Shown here in pieces: positions 4,367 through 17,931 of a stretch of 64,000 bases of DNA; positions within the stretch are counted from its first letter, which is position 1; every line of letters begins with the position of its first letter. Location: positions 458,134 to 522,133 of the forward strand of contig NZ_LIVX01000005.1 in NCBI RefSeq assembly GCF_001905665.1, in the 5' to 3' direction. The position numbers were made by a program, and so were the translations under genes. This stretch comes from Streptomyces sp. CB02261. Its GTDB lineage: Bacteria > Actinomycetota > Actinomycetes > Streptomycetales > Streptomycetaceae. The notes beneath the pieces are model-generated. The model was not told the origin of the DNA and ran no database searches. It worked only from the letters and a program-made list of their open reading frames with translations.

Positions 4367-6928
4367 TCACCGTCGGCCCGTCATCTCCCCGCCGGAGGCC
4401 TGCCGCCATCGTTCGCCCGCGAAGCGTTGGAGCGCGTCATCCAATTCCGGGCTGATCGTCGCGTCGTCGGGGTCTCCGGTAGGGCAGTCGAGTGGCCACA
4501 GAGCCACCCAGCCGGTGCTGTTGACCCGGATCTGTGGCCCCGGGGTGGCCTCGGCGGTGAACCGCAGGTGAAGCATCACGGTGCCGTCGTCATTCTTGCC
4601 GAGCGGCGGTTCGAAGAGGCGCGGTGCGATGTCCGCGACCTCCCGCCATTCGATGCGGAGCGTTCGCTTACCCGAGGCGAACTCGATCCCTCCCTCGTCC
4701 AGGCTTAATTCGGCGCGCCGCCAGGTGAGGGGCGGAACCAACAGGTCGACGGCAGGGGGAAGCGCCACGAAGAAGCCCACGGTCTGCCATGCGCCAGGAT
4801 CCTGCCAGCCGTCCTGGTAGGTGATGATGGCGATCCACACCAGCGCGATCGTCCACATCCCCACGTACAGGGCTGGCTGACCTCTGGTGCTCCGCAGCCC
4901 GACGTAGCCGGGGAGACGTACGGACTGTTCAGTTCTGCTCGCTGTGGGTAGTGGGCGGACCGGCCAGGGCGCGCGGGTGGGGGCACGCCGCTGACGCGCC
5001 GGCGCGCCGCCGCGCTGATGTGCCGCGAGGCCCGCCTGGATCTGGGCGTGCCGGAACTGGTAGACGCCGCCGACCTGCCGCAGCAGGCCCACCCGACGCG
5101 CGTCCTCGAGGAACGCCATGGTCGACCACGGCAACTTGCCCAGGACCGCGAGAGTCACCTTCGCGAGCAGCCACTGCGTCCAGGGGCTGAGCGCCACGAT
5201 CACCGCGGCCGCCCCTGTGGTTCCGGAGATCCAGCTGCCCAACAGCACGGTGCGGTCGGGGACCTGGACGATGCTGAGGGTGCCGATGGCTCCGATCACC
5301 GGTGCGACACCGAGGACCATGAGCACGGTACTGGCCCGCTCGCCGCTGAGCAGTGCCCGCGGTCCGACGGCCTGCGCGGTGTCGGCGGGCGCGCCGACGA
5401 CCATCATGAGCAGCGGCGGGACAATGAAGCCCAGCGCCATGAACGGCTCGTCCTGTTGCAGGAGCAAGACGATGGGTGCCAGAAACATAAGAAGCCAGAA
5501 CAGGCCTGGGATGCGTGAGCGGTGCTTGCCGAACGCGGCGAGCCGACGAGGCATAGCCCCCTTCAACACGTGCGAGAGCAGGAGGAGTATGCCTCCCATC
5601 ATCCCGAACATCGTGGCGGCCCAGGCTCCCACGGCTACCTGGAAGGCTTGAAACGCATCACCTCGTGTGATCCAGTCCTGGAACCACGAGGAACCCACCA
5701 TCAGCAGCGCGTAGCCGGCCAGCAGCGCCGGTGCCTTGAGTAGCGTGGGCGCCTTCGCTCGGTGGAGCTCCCACCAGGCGAACTCCTTGGTCTTTGCCAC
5801 GGTGAGATGGGCGGCCAGGAAGCCAAGGGCACGCTGCGCCTGCGCGTGCCCCCACTCGCGTACCGGATGAGGCTGGTGGGGCGAGGCCGGTCCGGAGGGG
5901 AAGACCGCTGGAACGATCGAGTCGAGCAGGTGCCGTTCGATGGCCACGACGTCGGGAAAGCGGGTCTCGTCGGCGAGCTCGCCGGGCTCGGCGTCCGCGC
6001 GGGCATACACCGTGCGGGCCAGCCAGAGCATGAGGGGGGACGAGAGGGCCCTGGCCGCCGCGGATTCGGGGTGGTGGGTGATGTGGTCCAGGAGCTCCTG
6101 CCAGCGCCGGGTGCGCTGGGGGTGCGAAGAGCCGCGCAGGTACGCGGCCGCCGCGGCCCCTTCCACCGGCTGCGCCTTGATCACGGCCGCCGCCTGCAAC
6201 ACGGCCTCCTCTGCGACGAGTTCGGCGTACTCCGTCGTGCGGGAGGTGAGAATGAGCGGCGCGCTGCCGGCGCCCGTCCTGTTGAGCCCGGCCAGTGCCG
6301 CGGACCGAAGCGGACGCGGTAATTCGTCCAGGCCGTCAAGAACCGGAAGTATCCGCCGGTCGCGTACCAGTTCGCGGATTCGGGCGCGGTCGAGATCCTT
6401 GCTCAGGCCGGCGTACTCCTCATGGATGCGGCGCGCGAGCCAGGTGTCGAAGTGTTCCTTGCTCGCGTCCCAGGAGGAAACCAGCAGCGGTACGGGAACG
6501 GGCCTCGTCACATCGTGCAGGCTCAGCAACTGCAGCGCGAGCAGGATTGCCAGGGACGTCTTGCCCGTGCCGGGACCACCGATGATCACCAGACGCTGGG
6601 CGGGCAGAGCCTGGAAGGCGGCGGCTAGTTCGGCGAGGCCGGCAGTGCTGCCGGCCACGTCCGCCCCGATGTGCTCACGGTGATCGGCGACCGTCCAGTC
6701 GGCCCGCCAGCCCACCGCGAGCCTGGCGCTTCCGGCCAGGCCGAGGGCCCCCGCCTCATCCCGCCACTGGGCGAGTACCACGCGCGCCACCTCGGCGGCG
6801 GCGCGGTCCTCCGACGTCTGCGGCAACGGCAGATGCAGGTGGACGGCACTGAAGTCCCGACCCTGGATCACGTACGTCGCATTGCCCGAGAACACGTTGT
6901 GCACGTCGCCCTGCGCCTGCTCCGACAT
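4367..6928 (-). CDS. NACHT-type NTPase with N-terminal amyloid-like motif and membrane domain
   Basis: This 853-residue protein starts at ATG 6928. Domains in order: a short N-terminal motif (residues 7-32, GDVHNVFSG...VIQGRDFSAVH); NACHT core with Walker A GGPGTGKT (117-124), Walker B ILPVLDGLDEL (193-203) and sensor-like LILTSRT (225-231); about six hydrophobic helices between residues 395 and 580; two more near 690-730; and a C-terminal region (about 750-830) that reads like a PH-like beta domain (TLRIEWREVADI). Family knowledge: NACHT STAND NTPases act as NLR-like sensors that oligomerise on activation. Inference: the N-terminal motif recruits the product of the neighbouring gene. At least two TTA codons occur (in LDELPRP and AELSL), suggesting bldA dependence. 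No strong ribosome binding site precedes the start. Confidence 0.85.
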   Translation of the reverse strand: MSEQAQGDVHNVFSGNATYVIQGRDFSAVHLHLPLPQTSEDRAAAEVARVVLAQWRDEAGALGLAGSARLAVGWRADWTVADHREHIGADVAGSTAGLAELAAAFQALPAQRLVIIGGPGTGKTSLAILLALQLLSLHDVTRPVPVPLLVSSWDASKEHFDTWLARRIHEEYAGLSKDLDRARIRELVRDRRILPVLDGLDELPRPLRSAALAGLNRTGAGSAPLILTSRTTEYAELVAEEAVLQAAAVIKAQPVEGAAAAAYLRGSSHPQRTRRWQELLDHITHHPESAAARALSSPLMLWLARTVYARADAEPGELADETRFPDVVAIERHLLDSIVPAVFPSGPASPHQPHPVREWGHAQAQRALGFLAAHLTVAKTKEFAWWELHRAKAPTLLKAPALLAGYALLMVGSSWFQDWITRGDAFQAFQVAVGAWAATMFGMMGGILLLLSHVLKGAMPRRLAAFGKHRSRIPGLFWLLMFLAPIVLLLQQDEPFMALGFIVPPLLMMVVGAPADTAQAVGPRALLSGERASTVLMVLGVAPVIGAIGTLSIVQVPDRTVLLGSWISGTTGAAAVIVALSPWTQWLLAKVTLAVLGKLPWSTMAFLEDARRVGLLRQVGGVYQFRHAQIQAGLAAHQRGGAPARQRRAPTRAPWPVRPLPTASRTEQSVRLPGYVGLRSTRGQPALYVGMWTIALVWIAIITYQDGWQDPGAWQTVGFFVALPPAVDLLVPPLTWRRAELSLDEGGIEFASGKRTLRIEWREVADIAPRLFEPPLGKNDDGTVMLHLRFTAEATPGPQIRVNSTGWVALWPLDCPTGDPDDATISPELDDALQRFAGERWRQASGGEMTGRR

Positions 6929-7112
6929 GCCCGCTCACTCGGTCCTGGTCCGCGGTCTGTAGGAAAGCTCCATCGTGTACACCCCCGCCTCGCCCGACGC
7001 CGCGCTCCTGCCGTTCCGACACCGGGCGGCCCGCCTCCGGACGTGCGGACGCACGGAGGCGTACTGATGACTGCACGTCAGAGCGCCCCATCACGGCAGA
7101 ACCGGCTCCGCG

Positions 7113-7520
7113 TCATGGCTGGTTGAATGTGATGGGGCTGTGGAAATCCCGCCCCATGATCACAGTGCCCTGCCTGCCGCCTGTGACGCGATTGTCGACA
7201 TCACCCGCACCGGTTCGCGCCGCGGCGTCTTCCGCGGTACTCCGCCAGGCCGCGAGAGCGTCGCGGAACGCCTCGTCGTACGTGGCCCGCAACGCCAGCA
7301 CGCGGGCGAGCGCTCGCGCCCGCTCCGTGCTCTCGGCCTGCTCGCCCAGGGCCACGAGCTCTTCCTCCCCTGACGGGAGCTCCTCGGGTGCGCCGGTCAT
7401 CCTGTCCGCTGCGGTGCGGCGCCGCACGAGGTCGCGCAGCGACATCCATGCCTGCTGCCCTGCCGCACCCGCCGTACCACTGGCCAGCGCCGTGAGGAGC
7501 TCGGCCGTGATCACTTCCAT
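7113..7520 (-). CDS. Small helical effector-like protein with C-terminal amyloid-like motif (Bell-type)
   Basis: The ATG at 7520 follows GGAGG by 4 nt; the product is 135 residues. The N-terminus TAELLTALASGTAGAAGQQA is Gly/Ala-rich and likely amphipathic or membrane-interacting; residues 25-100 are predicted helical and charged. The C-terminus (106-132) reads GDVDNRVTGG...VIMGRDFHSPI and matches the N-terminal motif of the downstream NACHT protein at the same key residues (GDV, N, G, VI, GRDF). Family knowledge: in bacterial NLR amyloid signalling, a small helical (Bell) effector carries a motif shared with an adjacent NLR. The gene lies 184 bp upstream of the NTPase on the same strand. Cell-death activity is inference. 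Confidence 0.7.
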   Translation of the reverse strand: MEVITAELLTALASGTAGAAGQQAWMSLRDLVRRRTAADRMTGAPEELPSGEEELVALGEQAESTERARALARVLALRATYDEAFRDALAAWRSTAEDAAARTGAGDVDNRVTGGRQGTVIMGRDFHSPITFNQP

Positions 7521-8068
7521 GGATCCTCCGTTTCCCCGTCGTCCCGCCCAAACTCCCACGCCCCTAGTCGAGTTGGCGCCAGTGGAGGGGGCGTTACCCG
7601 AACGGTACCTGCCCGCATCGCCCCGCGCCCGAACCTCCGTGCCGGGATCCCGGGCAGGGCCGGCAGTGCATTCCGGCCCCGCCGTCACGCCTGTTCACCA
7701 ACCCAGGTCTCCGCTCGTCCGCTACCCCTCGGAATAACCGCCACTGTGAACAGGAGCCTGACCGAGACCTCGGCTTACTCGGAATGCCCCTCGGAATGCC
7801 CGCCACGTACCGGAATCACAGAACCGGCGCCACGGACCTCGGTCAGGACTGGTCTGAGACACGCCGTGTCCTCTCGACGTCGTCGACGACCGGCATGTGT
7901 CGACGAGCGGGACCCGGGTCGGCATGGTGAGCGCAGACACACCCTGGCGCACGTGCAATCCGGAATTCCGGGTAGGGGCAGTACTGGGAGTTCACGTGCC
8001 GAGTGAAGCCCGGACAGGGCATGCGCAATGCCGTGCCGCCTGACGATCACGGAAAGCGATTACTGATC
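7521..8068. other. Intergenic region before the desaturase
   Basis: No gene is supported in this 548-bp gap between two divergent genes. It holds a short direct repeat around 7779-7799 (CTCGGAATGCC twice). Promoters for the Bell-like gene (minus) and the desaturase (plus) must lie here, but no clear -35/-10 pair was identified. Confidence 0.4.
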
Positions 8069-9118
8069 ATGAACTCCTCACAGACGGTGCGTCCCCCTCC
8101 CGAGCGGGCGAGGCCGGCCAGCGACTTCGCCCGGCTCTCCCGGAAGATCCAGGAGGCCGGCCTGATGGACCGGCGCCCCGGCTACTACGCCTTGCGCATC
8201 ACGCTCGTGACGGCCCTGTACGCCGCCGGATGGACGGCCTTCGTCCTGATTGGTGACACGTGGTGGACGTTGCTGACAGCCGTTTTCCTCGCCTTCGTGT
8301 TCGGACAGGTGGCACTGCTCGCGCACGACCTCGCCCACCGACAGGTCTTCCGGCTGCGCAAGGCCAGCGAGGTGTCCGGGCGCATCGCCGGAAACCTCGG
8401 CATCGGCATGGGATACGGCTGGTGGCAGGACAAGCACACCCGCCACCACGCCAACCCCAACCACGAGGATCTCGACCCTGATCTCGACCCGGACATCCTC
8501 GTCTGGACGCAGGACCAGGCCCGTGCGGCCAGGGGACTGCCGCGGCTCCTCGGCCGCTCGCAGGCGTTCCTGTTCTTCCCCCTGCTCACGCTGGAGGGGT
8601 TCAACCTGCACGTGTCCGCGGTGCGGTCGCTGTTCGACCGCTCGCTCAAGCACCGCATGTGGGAGGGGGCTCTGCTCGCCACGCATGTCGCGGCCTACCT
8701 CGGCGCGCTGTTCCTGGTGCTGCCGCCAGGCAAGGCGGTCGTGTTCCTCCTCGTCCACCAATGCCTCTTCGGGGTCTACCTCGGCTCGATCTTCGCTCCG
8801 AACCACAAGGGCATGCCGATCCTGCGAGGCGCCGACCGCCCCGACTTCCTGAGGCGCCAGGTCCTGACCTCCCGCAACGTGCGCGGAGGCCGGTTCACCG
8901 ACATCGTCCTCGGCGGTCTCAACTACCAGATCGAGCACCATCTCTTCCCGAGCATGCCCAGCCCGCATCTGCGCAGGGCCCAGACCATCGTCCGCAGGTA
9001 CTGCCAGGAGATCGGGGTCAGCTACCTGGAGACCACCCTGGCCGACTCGTACCGCCAGACCCTCGCCAGCCTCCACGCCGCGGGAGCCCCCTTGAGAATG
9101 CCGCGCACCGCCGCCTGA
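8069..9118 (+). CDS. Membrane fatty acid desaturase family protein
   Basis: The ATG at 8069 (MNSSQTVRPP) is chosen; GGAAAG lies about 12 nt upstream. The 349-residue protein has the three histidine boxes of the integral-membrane di-iron desaturases: HDLAHR near residue 83, HTRHHANPNHE near 122 and IEHHLFP near 289. Hydrophobic pairs flank the first box (residues 45-75) and sit around 190-240. Family knowledge: these enzymes insert a cis double bond into acyl chains using oxygen and an electron donor at the cytoplasmic membrane. No ferredoxin or reductase gene is adjacent. The substrate is unknown. Confidence 0.9.
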   Translation: MNSSQTVRPPPERARPASDFARLSRKIQEAGLMDRRPGYYALRITLVTALYAAGWTAFVLIGDTWWTLLTAVFLAFVFGQVALLAHDLAHRQVFRLRKASEVSGRIAGNLGIGMGYGWWQDKHTRHHANPNHEDLDPDLDPDILVWTQDQARAARGLPRLLGRSQAFLFFPLLTLEGFNLHVSAVRSLFDRSLKHRMWEGALLATHVAAYLGALFLVLPPGKAVVFLLVHQCLFGVYLGSIFAPNHKGMPILRGADRPDFLRRQVLTSRNVRGGRFTDIVLGGLNYQIEHHLFPSMPSPHLRRAQTIVRRYCQEIGVSYLETTLADSYRQTLASLHAAGAPLRMPRTAA

Positions 9119-13932: not shown

Positions 13933-14397
13933 GTGATTGATCACGGTGTTGCTCTGCCGTACTACCGCCTCCATGTGGTGCCTGCCGTCGTGGCGCTGGC
14001 GAGTCCGACATGGCAGCGAGAGGTGTGGCTCGATCCGGGTCAGTTCGAGGACCTCAAGTACACGGTGCATGTGCTTTTCGACGACTTCTGCGATGCGGAC
14101 AATCCGTGGCCCTGGCTGGGGCAGTGTCTTCGCAGCGAGGAGGAGGTTGAACTGATGGCAGGTCTTGGTACCGCCTACAACGCGGTGCAGGACTCGATCG
14201 GCTCCGCTGCCTGCGACAAGGTCTATCTGGACTCACCAGGCTGGTTTGCCGTAGTCGCCGCGGCAGCCCGGTTGGCCCAGGTGATGGTGTCCAATGATCA
14301 CTCGGCGCTGAGCAAGCTGCATGACGCCGGCTATCGCTGGCCGCTCGGCGCCGAGCCGGTTGCGTCCGGGACGGATGACCAGCACGGCGAGTCATGA
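13933..14397 (+). CDS. SCO4402-like hypothetical protein
   Basis: The ATG at 13933 gives 154 residues. The layout (RLHVVPAVVALASPTWQREV, then FEDLKYTVHVLFDDF, then a DPWPW-like turn and VELMAGLGTAYNAVQDSIG) resembles the SCO4402-type family of small actinobacterial proteins of unknown role. The last codons touch an IS5-type fragment on the other strand, so the C-terminus (VASGTDDQHGES) may be altered by that insertion. Confidence 0.55.
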   Translation: MIDHGVALPYYRLHVVPAVVALASPTWQREVWLDPGQFEDLKYTVHVLFDDFCDADNPWPWLGQCLRSEEEVELMAGLGTAYNAVQDSIGSAACDKVYLDSPGWFAVVAAAARLAQVMVSNDHSALSKLHDAGYRWPLGAEPVASGTDDQHGES

Positions 14398-14790
14398 AAC
14401 GCAGCCAGATGACCTGGGCCGCAGCGGTGACCGTTCCAAGGAAGACGTAGTCGCGCTTGTCGTACCGCGTTGCCGCGGCCCGGGAGTTCTTCAGTCGATT
14501 GACGGCCCGTTCGACGGTGTTGCGTTCCTTGTAGCGCTCCTCGTCGAAGCCCGGCGGTCGACCGCCTCGTGAACCTTTGCGGAGGCGGGCGGCATGACTG
14601 TCGATCTTCTCCGGAATGGTGTGCCGGATACCTCGTCGCTGCACGTACTCGCGGCAGGTGCCGCTGCTTTGCTGTATCCCTTGTCTGCCGCGATGCTGTT
14701 GGGTTTCTTGCGGGGCCTGCCCGGACCGAGGCGGGGAACGCGGATCTTCTCCAGCCCCGGCACGAACTGAGTGCAGTCCGTGGGGATCTC
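14396..14790 (-). pseudogene. IS5-type transposase C-terminal fragment
   Basis: Minus frame: EYVQRRGIRHTIPEKIDSHA, RGGRPPGFDEERYKERNTVE, RAVNRLKNSRAAATRYDKRD, YVFLGTVTAAAQVIWL. This is the last third of an IS5-like DDE transposase; the E of the DDE triad is expected in ERNTVERAVNRLK. Upstream, SIAADKGYS in another frame shows a frameshift. Both ends are truncated, and it separates a SCO4402-like gene from a SMI1/KNR4 fragment. Confidence 0.8.
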
Positions 14791-15229
14791 CCTCCATGGG
14801 GATCTGCGAACGTGGCTGTTGCAGAACAGTCTGGATCTGCCTGAGGAAGATGTCGACGACGGAGTGGCATGTTGCGGCTTCGACGGGTTCCCGGACGAGG
14901 GAAGCTTCTTTCTGGGCATTCGGGCGATGGAGAAGCTGTACGCGAACCGCTCCATGCCCGGTGGATTCGACCCTCCGGACCAGCCGGACAATCCGTTCTG
15001 GCGTAATGAGTGGATCCCGTTCCTGTCGGACCAGGACGGCTGGATGGGCAAGTTCATCGATGTGCGGGACGGGCGTGTCGGACGCTGGTTCGTGGGTGAG
15101 ATCACGGTCACGGGCGAGTATGAATCGCTGGCCCAGTACTTCGACTCCGTGGCGGAGATGCTGACGAAGATCGCCAATGGGACCCACCCGGTCTGCGCGG
15201 TTGCCGAAGGCCGACTCGTCTGGTCGTGA
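14771..15229 (+). pseudogene. SMI1/KNR4 (SUKH)-like protein, 5'-truncated
   Basis: Residues 18-152 read as the latter two thirds of a SUKH/SMI1-KNR4 protein: LYANRSMPGGFDPP, WIPFLSDQDGWMGKFIDVRD, VGRWFVGEITVTGEYESLAQ, YFDSVAEMLTKI. Family knowledge: these act as immunity or peptidoglycan-synthesis regulators, often against secreted toxins. The first part of the frame comes from the IS5 end, so the native N-terminus is lost. No cognate toxin gene is nearby. Confidence 0.65.
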
Positions 15230-15234
15230 GGCGG

Positions 15235-15735
15235 TCACCCTGGAACGGCAATGAGCTTCGTCAGCGTTGCCCCTCCAGGGTGGGGAGCCTGCTGGTCGGT
15301 GTGGTCACCCAGGGCCGGCGGAACGCCCTGGCTTTCACAGATTCGGATGATGCGGTGGTTTCGGGCCGCGGTCAGGTCATGGGCATGTGGCCGTACGTTG
15401 CGTGGTACTGCCGAATTGCGGCCGGCCAGGCAGAGGCCGTTCTCCCGGCTGCAGACGACGTGCCGCAGGGGTAATTCGTCCAGTACGACCCACAGACTCA
15501 ACGGGCGGGCTGGGGTCGTAGACCCGGTGCGGGCGTCGGTAAAAAAGGAATCCCTGCTCGGCGAGGCGGCGAGCGAGGCGATCGCCGCTTCTTCGTCCGC
15601 CGCGTTCGGGATGCCGGGCGCGGTGGCGATTCGGTCCGCGTGCGTACTGTTGGCGACTCGAATACGGCGAACGGCTCCGCCCCTGGAAGAAAAGGGGGGA
15701 GCCGTTGCACGGTGGTGCAGTCCTACAGAGGCCGC
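15235..15735 (-). other. Unassigned 500 bp with a weak minus-strand ORF
   Basis: An 88-codon minus ORF (15235-15501) begins MSLWVVLDELPLRHVVCSRE; the frame is open further upstream without a better start. The first 20 residues look protein-like, but the remainder (NHRIIRICESQGVPPALGDH) fits no family I recognise. No ribosome binding site was seen, so it is left as unassigned. Confidence 0.3.
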
Positions 15736-17122: not shown

Positions 17123-17600
17123 TCACCGGATTAGTCGGCGGTAGCCGATGAGGGTCGCGGCTATGCCGACGAAGGCGAGGAAGTGTTCGGCCTTGCGTTC
17201 GTAGCGGCGGTGGAGGCGCCGGCAGCCGGCCAGCCAGGACACGGTTCTTGCGACCACCCACCGATGTCTGCCCAGCCGCTGTGAGGACTCGATGCCCTTG
17301 CGGGCGATGCGGTGGGTGATGCCGCGCTTGCGAAGCCATCGGCGCAGGTGGTCGTAGTCGTATCCCTTGTCGGCGTGCAGTTTCGCCGGGCGCCGGCGGC
17401 GCGGGCCGCGGCGGGCCCGGATGGGCGGGATGCCGCGCACGAGCGGCTCCAGGCCCTGGCTGTCGTGCATGTTCGCGCCGGAGATGCCCAGCGACAGCGG
17501 CAGTCCGTTCCGGTCACAGATCATGTGGATCTTCGATCCCAGCTTGCCACGGTCGGTCTGATTCGGTCCCGTCAGTGGCCCCCATTTGCAGCCCGGAGAC
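17123..17600 (-). CDS. IS5-family transposase, second reading frame (catalytic part)
   Basis: The frame carries GPLTGPNQTDRGKLGSKIHM, LPLSLGISGANMHDSQGLEP, LHADKGYDYDHLRRWLRKRG and the C-terminal HRWVVARTVSWLAGCRRLHR followed by RYERKAEHFLAFVGIAATLI. The DDE residues are expected in the SGANMHDS and ADKGYD regions and the E position of the last block. There is no start codon of its own; it would be made by a ribosomal frameshift from the upstream frame near GCAAATGGGGGCC. The open frame extends upstream to 17767, but only this part is meaningful. Confidence 0.75.
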
Positions 17601-17931
17601 TGACCGAGTCGATCGCGCACCGCGACCAGTCCAGCTCGCCCCGCGCTCCGAGTTCGTCGAGGATCAAGCGGTAGAGCTTTGCCCAGACCCGGTCCCGGCT
17701 CCACTGTGCGAAGCGCCGGTAGACCGTGGGCCAGGCGGGGCCGAACACCGGCGGCAGCTGCCGCCATGTGCAGCCTGAGGTCGCCACGAAGATGATGGCA
17801 GCCAGAGCCTCACGGTCACCTGCCCGCCGCCGGCCACCGCCCTGCGGACGTATCACCACCGTCGGCGGTACCACCCGCCGGAACAGCACCCACAACTCGT
17901 CCGGCACCAGCCGTTCGACCAGATCCGCCAT
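17572..17931 (-). CDS. IS5-family transposase, first reading frame
   Basis: The 119-residue product starts MADLVERLVPDELWVLFRRV and contains REALAAIIFVATSGCTWRQL and FGPAWPTVYRRFAQWSRDRV, the N-terminal domain of IS427-group IS5 transposases, ending DSVSLRAANGGH. The last residues overlap the second frame, the usual arrangement for programmed frameshifting in this group. All expected motifs appear intact, so this copy may still be active. Confidence 0.8.
   Translation of the reverse strand: MADLVERLVPDELWVLFRRVVPPTVVIRPQGGGRRRAGDREALAAIIFVATSGCTWRQLPPVFGPAWPTVYRRFAQWSRDRVWAKLYRLILDELGARGELDWSRCAIDSVSLRAANGGH

What the first reader, a model, noticed from the sequence alone, without database searches (positions are those of the whole stretch)
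4367..6928. NACHT protein with an integral membrane block and PH-like tail instead of repeat sensor
Most NLR-like receptors end in LRR, WD40 or TPR repeats. Here the NACHT core is followed by about eight hydrophobic helices and a PH-like beta domain. That suggests membrane-embedded sensing, for example of membrane stress or depolarisation. At least two TTA codons also suggest that it is translated only when the bldA tRNA is active.
Basis: partly seen in the sequence, partly recalled or inferred. Interest (0 to 1): 0.55.

Follow-up and report, generated by a model that had tools for sequence, protein, structure and literature searches.

The report
Membrane-split immune receptor with helper gene
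This Streptomyces-type gene pair encodes a predicted immune-type receptor whose molecular switch is cut in two by six membrane-crossing helices, next to a small helper protein carrying the same prion-like tag, which suggests that the bacterium may sense trouble at its membrane and then trigger its own death.

Summary
In detail: 4367-6928 (-) encodes an 853-residue NACHT protein with six hydrophobic helices in one block, two more near the end, a PH-like beta tail (model only) and two TTA codons. The interpretation needs three corrections. (1) The six-helix block does not follow the NACHT module; it is inserted inside its winged-helix domain, the part that locks the switch in animal NLRs. Profile alignment to 32 block-free NACHTs becomes continuous only when the block is removed, and loop charges fit both winged-helix halves being cytoplasmic. 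The two genes form a sharply bounded unit in two other species, and the tags are among the most constrained parts. (3) bldA control is weakly supported. The NACHT-plus-membrane core recurs in actinomycetes with exchangeable ends. Most likely it is a membrane-anchored NLR that seeds its helper and kills or arrests the cell; trigger, amyloid formation and killing are untested. New variant of a known kind.

The parts
4367..6928 (-). NACHT receptor gene, 853 aa, with a transmembrane block inside its winged-helix domain
6821..6907 (-). residues 8-36: amyloid-signalling-type (BASS-like) tag, GDVHNVFSGNATYVIQGRDFSAVHLHLP region
   Evidence: profile built from 16 other effectors finds residues 6-28 at E 1.3e-4 among 8549 ORFs; dN/dS 0.16 and 0.07
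6140..6595 (-). residues 112-263: NACHT NTPase domain, Walker A GGPGTGKT and VLDGLDELP present
   Evidence: Pfam PF05729 E 2.8e-8; sequence
5753..5848 (-). residues 361-392: first part of the winged-helix domain (helices 361-378, 385-390)
   Evidence: model; continuous alignment to block-free NACHTs when the block is removed
5138..5752 (-). residues 393-597: six-helix transmembrane block inserted in the winged-helix domain
5003..5137 (-). residues 598-642: second part of the winged-helix domain, GLLRQVGGVYQFRHAQIQAGLA
   Evidence: matches GLLREP..VDFVHRTFQDYLAA of block-free NACHTs
4724..4876 (-). residues 685-735: second hydrophobic hairpin, probably transmembrane
4409..4720 (-). residues 737-840: PH-like beta domain with C-terminal helix (model only)
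   Evidence: no family match
7113..7520 (-). partner gene, 135 aa: five-helix bundle plus disordered C-terminal tag; GGAGG 4 bases before its ATG
7116..7208 (-). partner residues 105-135: C-terminal tag, GAGDVDNRVTGGRQGTVIMGRDFHSPITFNQP region
   Evidence: E 9.3e-11; low pLDDT; dN/dS 0.15, 0.18
6929..7112 (-). 184-base gap between the two genes; 0.63-0.73 identical to the two nearest orthologues in the two 60-base pieces printed
6320..6322 (-). TTA codon 203
4706..4708 (-). TTA codon 741

Best explanation
A two-gene, membrane-anchored NLR signalling unit. Shown by computation: the receptor is a NACHT protein whose winged-helix domain is split by a six-helix block with the marks of membrane helices, so that NTPase and both winged-helix halves would lie in the cytoplasm; its N-terminal tag matches the C-terminal tag of a small predicted helical-bundle protein made by the gene before it. 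Inferred: at rest the receptor sits in the membrane with its switch closed. A change in or at the membrane (or something bound by the block or the PH-like tail) shifts the split winged-helix domain, the NTPase exchanges nucleotide and assembles in the plane of the membrane, the clustered tags nucleate a cross-beta (amyloid-like) seed, the partner's tag is templated onto it, and the clustered helical bundles damage the membrane, killing or arresting an infected hypha. The membrane anchor would place the seed where the effector acts.
For: NACHT in 65 of 65 aligned rows; NOD2, NLRC4 and NLRP3 NACHT modules are the best structural matches of the model (Foldseek E 1.1e-4 for NOD2; VIA Z 16.8, 330 residues, rmsd 4.3 for NLRP3). 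Insertion: Walker A to F-x-H distance 508 here and 507-609 in 61 of 65 family rows, 289-327 in 31 of 32 block-free NACHTs, none of which 31 has a 19-residue peak >=1.6 between the two motifs; profile alignment to the 32 runs 16-340/9-343 (score 152.9, E 5e-20) with the block removed, but stops at column 219 (score 137.5) with it present, the second half then matching separately at 315-343. Six crossings, both ends inside. Tag pair: a profile from 16 effectors, window and S. megasporus left out, picks the window receptor N-terminus at E 1.3e-4 of 8549 ORFs; the window tag pair scores above all 2000 shuffles, z 6.8. Discrete unit: the DNA shared with L107 and L108 at this place covers just the two genes (4392-7540 at 82.7%; 4371-7545 at 79.1%), with 60-base pieces outside at 0.23-0.53. 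Tags are among the most constrained parts (dN/dS 0.07-0.18 against 0.29-0.36 for whole genes). Partner: five helices in 6-104 and a tag without confident structure.
Against: No experiment; amyloid formation, membrane insertion and cell killing are all inferred. The tag is not of the BASS3 (RHIM-like) class: no similarity above shuffles to the published Frankia BASS3 peptide, and its class was not identified. The cognate receptor is the best-scoring partner for only 2 of 9 effectors, one of them a tie, so exclusive pairing is not shown. 11 of 15 named PH-tail receptors have no recognisable partner beside them (partner sought with the window's own, so diverged ones would be missed). The partner's N-terminal helix is only weakly hydrophobic (19-residue maximum 1.23), below the 1.6 used for transmembrane peaks, and the partner matched no solved fold convincingly. 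No link to phage was found (no phage record matched the partner); the defence-system models that matched the receptor did so only within residues 100-142 (215 in one profile's own numbering).
Confidence: 0.55

Rival explanations
1. The membrane block is a passive anchor (or the conducting part itself): sensing is done elsewhere, and on assembly the six-helix blocks come together and form the pore, with the partner only stabilising it.
For: The block evolves faster than the NACHT part (dN/dS 0.32 and 0.50 against 0.25 and 0.25); the partner has no clear transmembrane helix; the same core occurs with N-terminal DNA-binding or protease parts, where the block could just anchor.
Against: An anchor needs one helix and no insertion in the switch domain. 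The insertion site is kept in the family and positions P523 and R531 in the loop between helices 4 and 5 are nearly invariant.
Confidence: 0.25
2. The hydrophobic helices are buried helices of a soluble helical domain and the protein is a cytosolic NLR.
For: NLRs have helical domains after the winged helix (general knowledge); the structure model contains no membrane and is less confident at about 460-520.
Against: Six segments with family-mean hydropathy 1.52-1.93 and an alternating Lys+Arg loop pattern over 65 rows; the block lies inside the winged-helix domain, not after it.
Confidence: 0.05
3. The shared tags are an ordinary adaptor (a folded or induced beta interaction), not an amyloid; receptor and partner form a stoichiometric complex that regulates development or stress response rather than death.
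For: No amyloid test was possible; family members with SARP/BTAD or helix-turn-helix N-termini look like regulators; TTA codons would fit developmental timing.
Against: Tag position (receptor N-terminus, effector C-terminus), lack of confident structure in the model, and gene adjacency match the published layout of bacterial amyloid signalosomes (PMC7889193, section 9 read).
Confidence: 0.25
4. The tag similarity is chance or common ancestry without functional pairing.
For: A receptor tag of another locus often scores higher than the cognate one; many relatives lack an adjacent partner.
Against: Shuffle test 0 of 2000; profile E 1.3e-4; the two genes are conserved as one bounded unit; low dN/dS in the tags on both sides.
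Confidence: 0.07

Closest known systems
Bacterial amyloid-signalling NLR/effector pairs (BASS motifs, BELL domain; Dyrka et al. 2020, not held; described in PMC7889193, section 9 read)
   Same: Adjacent genes; motif at the NLR N-terminus and at the C-terminus of a small helical-bundle protein; filamentous actinomycetes.
   Different: Here the NLR has a membrane block that splits its winged-helix domain and a PH-like tail; the motif does not resemble the one published BASS3 peptide tested and its class is unassigned; BELL membership not established.
bNACHT / NLR-related antiphage proteins (bNACHT25 and others; PMC12169576, passages seen)
   Same: Central NACHT module with tripartite layout.
   Different: The passages seen describe no membrane block; here the block interrupts the winged-helix domain and signalling would be by a separate partner protein, not a fused nuclease.
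Animal NLRs (NLRP3, NOD2, NLRC4)
   Same: Best structural matches of the NACHT module; that their winged-helix domain locks the switch is general knowledge.
   Different: No transmembrane helices in the switch domain and LRR sensors (recalled); different N-terminal domains.
[quoted passage not shown] that it concerns KAP is recalled; the paper is not held)
   Same: The principle of membrane segments inserted inside a P-loop NTPase module.
   Different: Not the same family: Pfam names NACHT in 65 of 65 members and lists no KAP family; here the insertion is in the winged-helix domain, not the P-loop core.
EACC1-caspase and EAD conflict systems (PMC7159879, passages seen)
   Same: Multicellular bacteria; paired genes coupled by short shared modules; membrane association.
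   Different: Different core domains; Pfam found no caspase-type domain in either protein.

Membership tests
NACHT/NLR STAND NTPase | NACHT domain with Walker A and acidic Walker B | tested here: met
   PF05729 E 2.8e-8; G117, G120, G122, K123, D201, E202 invariant and D198 nearly so in 65 rows
NACHT/NLR STAND NTPase | winged-helix domain after the NTPase | tested here: met
   present but split by the membrane block; the first half alone found nothing in block-free NACHTs
NACHT/NLR STAND NTPase | C-terminal repeat sensor (usual, not defining for bacterial NACHTs) | tested here: not met
   a hairpin and a predicted beta domain instead; no repeat family matched
BASS/BELL amyloid signalosome | adjacent NLR and effector genes sharing a terminal motif | tested here: met
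BASS/BELL amyloid signalosome | effector is a small alpha-helical bundle | tested here: met
   model helices in 6-104, mean pLDDT 74.1 with 6 sequences
BASS/BELL amyloid signalosome | hydrophobic transmembrane helix in the effector | tested here: inconclusive
   maximum 19-residue hydropathy 1.23
BASS/BELL amyloid signalosome | motif is of the BASS3 (RHIM-like) class | tested here: not met
   z -0.8 to 0.1 against one published BASS3 peptide
BASS/BELL amyloid signalosome | motif matches one of the other published BASS families | not testable with these tools
   their sequences were not in the passages I saw; supplements could not be read
BASS/BELL amyloid signalosome | motif forms seedable amyloid | not testable with these tools
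   needs bench work
PH domain | beta barrel capped by a C-terminal helix | tested here: inconclusive
   strand order and helix in the model; no PH family in Pfam or PDB sequence search
KAP NTPase | match to the KAP family | tested here: not met
   none of the 20 Pfam families found among 65 members at E <= 0.01 is KAP

The most novel reading that the evidence does not exclude
A membrane-gated NLR: the winged-helix lock of the NACHT switch is physically threaded through the membrane, so that a change in bilayer tension, potential or composition, or a ligand in the bilayer, directly opens the switch, and the resulting ring seeds prion-like polymerisation of a death effector at that membrane. The same membrane-gated core is a reusable module in actinomycetes, coupled in other members to transcription regulators (SARP, helix-turn-helix), a protease, or WD40 repeats.
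Probability: 0.35. Interest if true: 0.82.

Novelty: new variant of a known kind. Interest (0 to 1): 0.58.

Why it matters
NLRs are thought of as soluble sensors with C-terminal repeats. An actinomycete family in which the switch domain itself spans the membrane would give a direct physical route from membrane state to NLR activation, and a system in which the open question of what triggers bacterial amyloid-signalling NLRs can be tested. It also shows one switch core exchanging N-terminal outputs (prion-like tag, transcription factor, protease).

Tried and rejected
The nearest of three published peptides was a fungal sigma motif: 18 of 1000 shuffles reach it for the window effector tag and 11 of 1000 for a consensus tag that I composed, but 546 of 1000 for the receptor tag. 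(b) Cognate specificity of tags: not shown, 2 of 9. (c) Conserved TTA position: not conserved. (d) Known defence family: NCBIfam matches all far below their cut-offs; PADLOC matches confined to the P-loop region. (e) Sequence relatives in PDB: the 60 rows shown of 373 were P-loop matches apart from one receptor matched over the membrane block, E 0.0082. (f) Fold of the partner: no significant match (Foldseek best E 1.5; VIA best Z 4.2), which does not exclude a relation to HeLo/MLKL-type bundles. (g) The first half of the winged helix alone found nothing in block-free NACHTs; only the joined profile and the second half did, and of the second-half hits 2 of 32 reached E < 0.01. (h) Literature: eight searches that bear on NACHT, NLR, amyloid or TTA (two of them, 39 and 80, found no paper) showed in their capped listings no paper whose title or abstract start describes transmembrane segments inside a NACHT winged-helix domain; most subscription papers are not held, and Dyrka 2020, Kibby 2023 and Aravind 2004 were not held. 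One search returned mainly unrelated Streptomyces papers.

Limits of the counts. Of the 47 of 150 genomes with a partner homologue at E <= 0.01, the weakest may be chance. The classes used regular expressions written after I had seen the sequences; they are rough (35 of 119 N-termini unclassified, 2 without a Walker match). Background ORFs were selected by GC3 > 0.85, which biases against TTA. Two effectors found (L051, L049) are the same places as training loci L094 and L097. Alignment A3 holds 64 of the 80 named loci: I left out L127, L130, L138, L141, L144, L150, L161, L165, L167, L169, L172, L176, L179, L181, L183 and L184 as fragments, odd lengths or near-duplicates. The block-free NACHT set is 32 of the 33 loci tried (L198 dropped, no frame found); 31 are of the window's genus and one (L193) of another family, which is also the one without an F-x-H match. 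I had seen only part of that set free of hydrophobic peaks when I first drafted, and checked the rest.
Full report
What is there. The ORF 4367-6928 on the minus strand encodes 853 residues. It has a Pfam NACHT domain (E 2.8e-8), two TTA codons (203, 741), and hydrophobic segments at 393-579 (six) and 686-734 (two). An AlphaFold2 model on a 65-row alignment (A3: the window and 64 of the 80 named loci) has mean pLDDT 82.7 and pTM 0.78.

Where the membrane block sits. In the model, helices 361-378 and 385-390 come before six long hydrophobic helices (395-580), and helix 603-612, a hairpin 616-619/622-625 and helix 628-640 follow: together these read as a winged helix cut between its second and third helix. 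Three sequence tests agree. The segment GLLRQVGGVYQFRHAQIQAGLA matches GLLREP..VDFVHRTFQDYLAA of block-free NACHTs (best E 6.6e-4, 2 of 32 below 0.01). The distance from Walker A to that F-x-H is 508 in the window and 507-609 in 61 of 65 family rows, against 289-327 in 31 of 32 block-free NACHTs; none of those 31 has a hydropathy peak >= 1.6 between the two motifs. In profile alignment to these 32, the intact family aligns only up to column 219, with the second half found separately; with residues 393-596 removed, one alignment covers 16-340 against 9-343 and scores higher (152.9 against 137.5). The first winged-helix half alone finds nothing significant, so its assignment rests on the model and the joined alignment.

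Membrane topology. Family-mean hydropathy over the six segments is 1.52-1.93, and mean Lys+Arg per loop alternates 2.92, 0.72, 6.54, 0.62, 2.78, 1.08, 3.52 from the N-terminal to the C-terminal side. One inside loop (helices 4-5) has as many acidic as basic residues, so its net charge does not follow the rule; the Lys+Arg counts do. Counting single peaks >= 1.6 per member gives 5 in 29, 6 in 20, 4 in 8, 7 in 4, 3 in 2 and 8 in 2 of the 65 rows, so the number six rests on the model and the family mean. Six crossings with both ends cytoplasmic is what an insertion into a cytoplasmic domain requires. Structural searches of the whole model put NOD2 and NLRC4 and NLRP3 and NOD2 NACHT modules first.

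The missed signalling end. Just upstream on the same strand lies a 135-residue gene (7113-7520) with GGAGG four bases before its ATG. Its model is a five-helix bundle with a C-terminus of low confidence. Its relatives occur in 47 of 150 same-genus genomes at E <= 0.01, some of these weak; 18 of them aligned end in a conserved tag (consensus GDVxNxISGGTxxGPVVQGRDFSG). The receptor begins with the same kind of tag. A profile made from 16 effector tags, leaving out the window and the S. megasporus locus (L087, the same place as L108), and run on 8549 ORFs, gives 20 hits at E <= 0.3: 8 effector C-termini (two of them training places), 11 NACHT receptors (in one, L124, at the C-terminus) and 1 other ORF; the window receptor scores 1.3e-4 and the window effector 9.3e-11. 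The window tag pair beats 2000 of 2000 shuffles and each of the nine adjacent pairs I chose beats at least 1987 of 2000, but the cognate receptor ranks first for only 2 of 9 effectors (one a tie), so the tags form a shared family rather than private keys.

A two-gene unit. Compared with Actinacidiphila glaucinigra (L107, receptor 81% identical) and Streptomyces megasporus (L108, 76%), the DNA shared around this place covers 4392-7540 and 4371-7545, that is, the two genes and nothing beside them; one separate stretch far away, 17141-17661, also matches L107. With the more distant Planosporangium locus L109 only parts of the receptor match at DNA level, though a partner with a similar tag lies 12 bases before its receptor. 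Identity per 60 bases is 0.78-0.93 in the gene pieces printed and 0.23-0.53 just outside. Only 6 of 150 same-genus genomes, this one included, have the tail, and of the other five one is close (71% over the tail). This patchy, sharply bounded pattern is what a transferred functional cassette looks like. dN/dS is below 1 throughout and low in the tags (0.16 and 0.07 in the receptor, 0.15 and 0.18 in the partner); the first winged-helix half against L107 is lower than the tag, 0.08, and the second hairpin is loosest, 0.73 against L107 (NG86 on short segments, so rough).

The wider family. All 65 aligned members carry Pfam NACHT. The family profile finds matches in 20 of 148 genomes of the class at E <= 1e-20, the single sequence in 29 of 61 genomes, mostly near relatives, at E <= 0.001. 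On plasmids 44 records match: 16 reach residue 631 or beyond, 26 match only over the NTPase part and 2 only over 497-631. N-termini are exchanged: SARP/BTAD with a DNA-binding domain (L129, L132), helix-turn-helix (L037), trypsin-like protease (L045); WD40 repeats follow the core in L031 and L175. So the membrane block is part of a reusable core, not a sensor peculiar to this gene. In a rough classification 13 of 14 labelled PH-tail members carry a tag-like N-terminus, but they may be one clade. Of 15 named PH-tail receptors, a recognisable partner lies beside 4 (L107, L108, L109 upstream, L110 downstream) and not beside 11 (L120's contig begins 1.1 kb upstream).

How it most likely works. General knowledge: animal NLRs are held closed by their winged-helix domain and assemble into rings on nucleotide exchange. 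From papers: bacterial tag pairs of this layout have been proposed as amyloid signalosomes with a BELL effector hypothesised to target membranes (PMC7889193, section 9 read), and a GFP fusion of a Streptomyces BASS3 motif forms foci in Podospora (PMC9815663, passages). Inferred here: membrane-coupled opening of the split winged helix, assembly in the membrane, tag nucleation, partner polymerisation and membrane damage. The trigger is unknown. Rivals are a passive anchor or the block as the pore, and a non-amyloid adaptor in a developmental regulator.

The bldA point. TTA codons are present in this gene and in both close orthologues but at different positions; four other tail-bearing receptors looked at had one (L021) or none (L088, L089, L090). 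They are about twice as frequent per codon in Streptomyces family loci as in selected neighbouring ORFs. This is compatible with late, bldA-dependent translation but does not establish it; the partner gene has no TTA.

Novelty. NLR/effector tag pairs and bacterial NACHT receptors are known, and insertion of membrane segments into a P-loop NTPase domain has a precedent (title of Aravind et al. 2004 seen in a reference list; KAP NTPases, recalled). In the capped listings of my searches I saw no description of a NACHT whose winged-helix domain is split by membrane helices. I therefore rate it a new variant of a known kind.

Noticed in passing
L124 (residues 940-964 of ORF 5917-8859) and L126 (934-965 of ORF 5869-8862): Two PH-tail receptors (S. 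netropsis, S. triculaminicus) carry a tag-like motif at the C-terminus as well as the N-terminus, e.g. IHNEISGQAHAGGVIQAGSVHGDIT; the profile hits are weak (E 0.15 and 3.8; sequences). A receptor tagged at both ends could cross-link.
   Followed up: no
   Followed up: no
L129, L131, L132, L139, L140, L145, L155 and others: Amycolatopsis, Pseudonocardia and Saccharothrix members have a SARP-like N-terminus (Trans_reg_C plus BTAD confirmed for L129 and L132; the others by eye) on the NACHT-membrane core: a possible membrane-gated transcription regulator.
   Followed up: partly
own genome, G000:C12:31103-31585 (L187): A second NACHT protein without the block (936-residue open frame, NACHT E 3.0e-26) exists in the same genome; the window receptor's own search found one match there, itself.
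   Followed up: partly
14054-15238 (-) and 14771-15229 (+): Weak DDE transposase remnant (E 0.0022, below cut-off) overlapping a SUKH-family gene (SMI1_KNR4 E 1.7e-5), suggesting a mobile or immunity-gene region.
   Followed up: no
8003-9118 (+): Fatty-acid desaturase gene (E 1.1e-40) divergent from the pair; no DNA match there to the orthologous loci L107-L109, so probably not part of the system.
   Followed up: partly
L098, L100, L102: Homologues of the same partner protein lie directly before Walker-A-bearing proteins with a similar N-terminal tag that did not match the window receptor's core: one effector family may serve several receptor types.
   Followed up: partly
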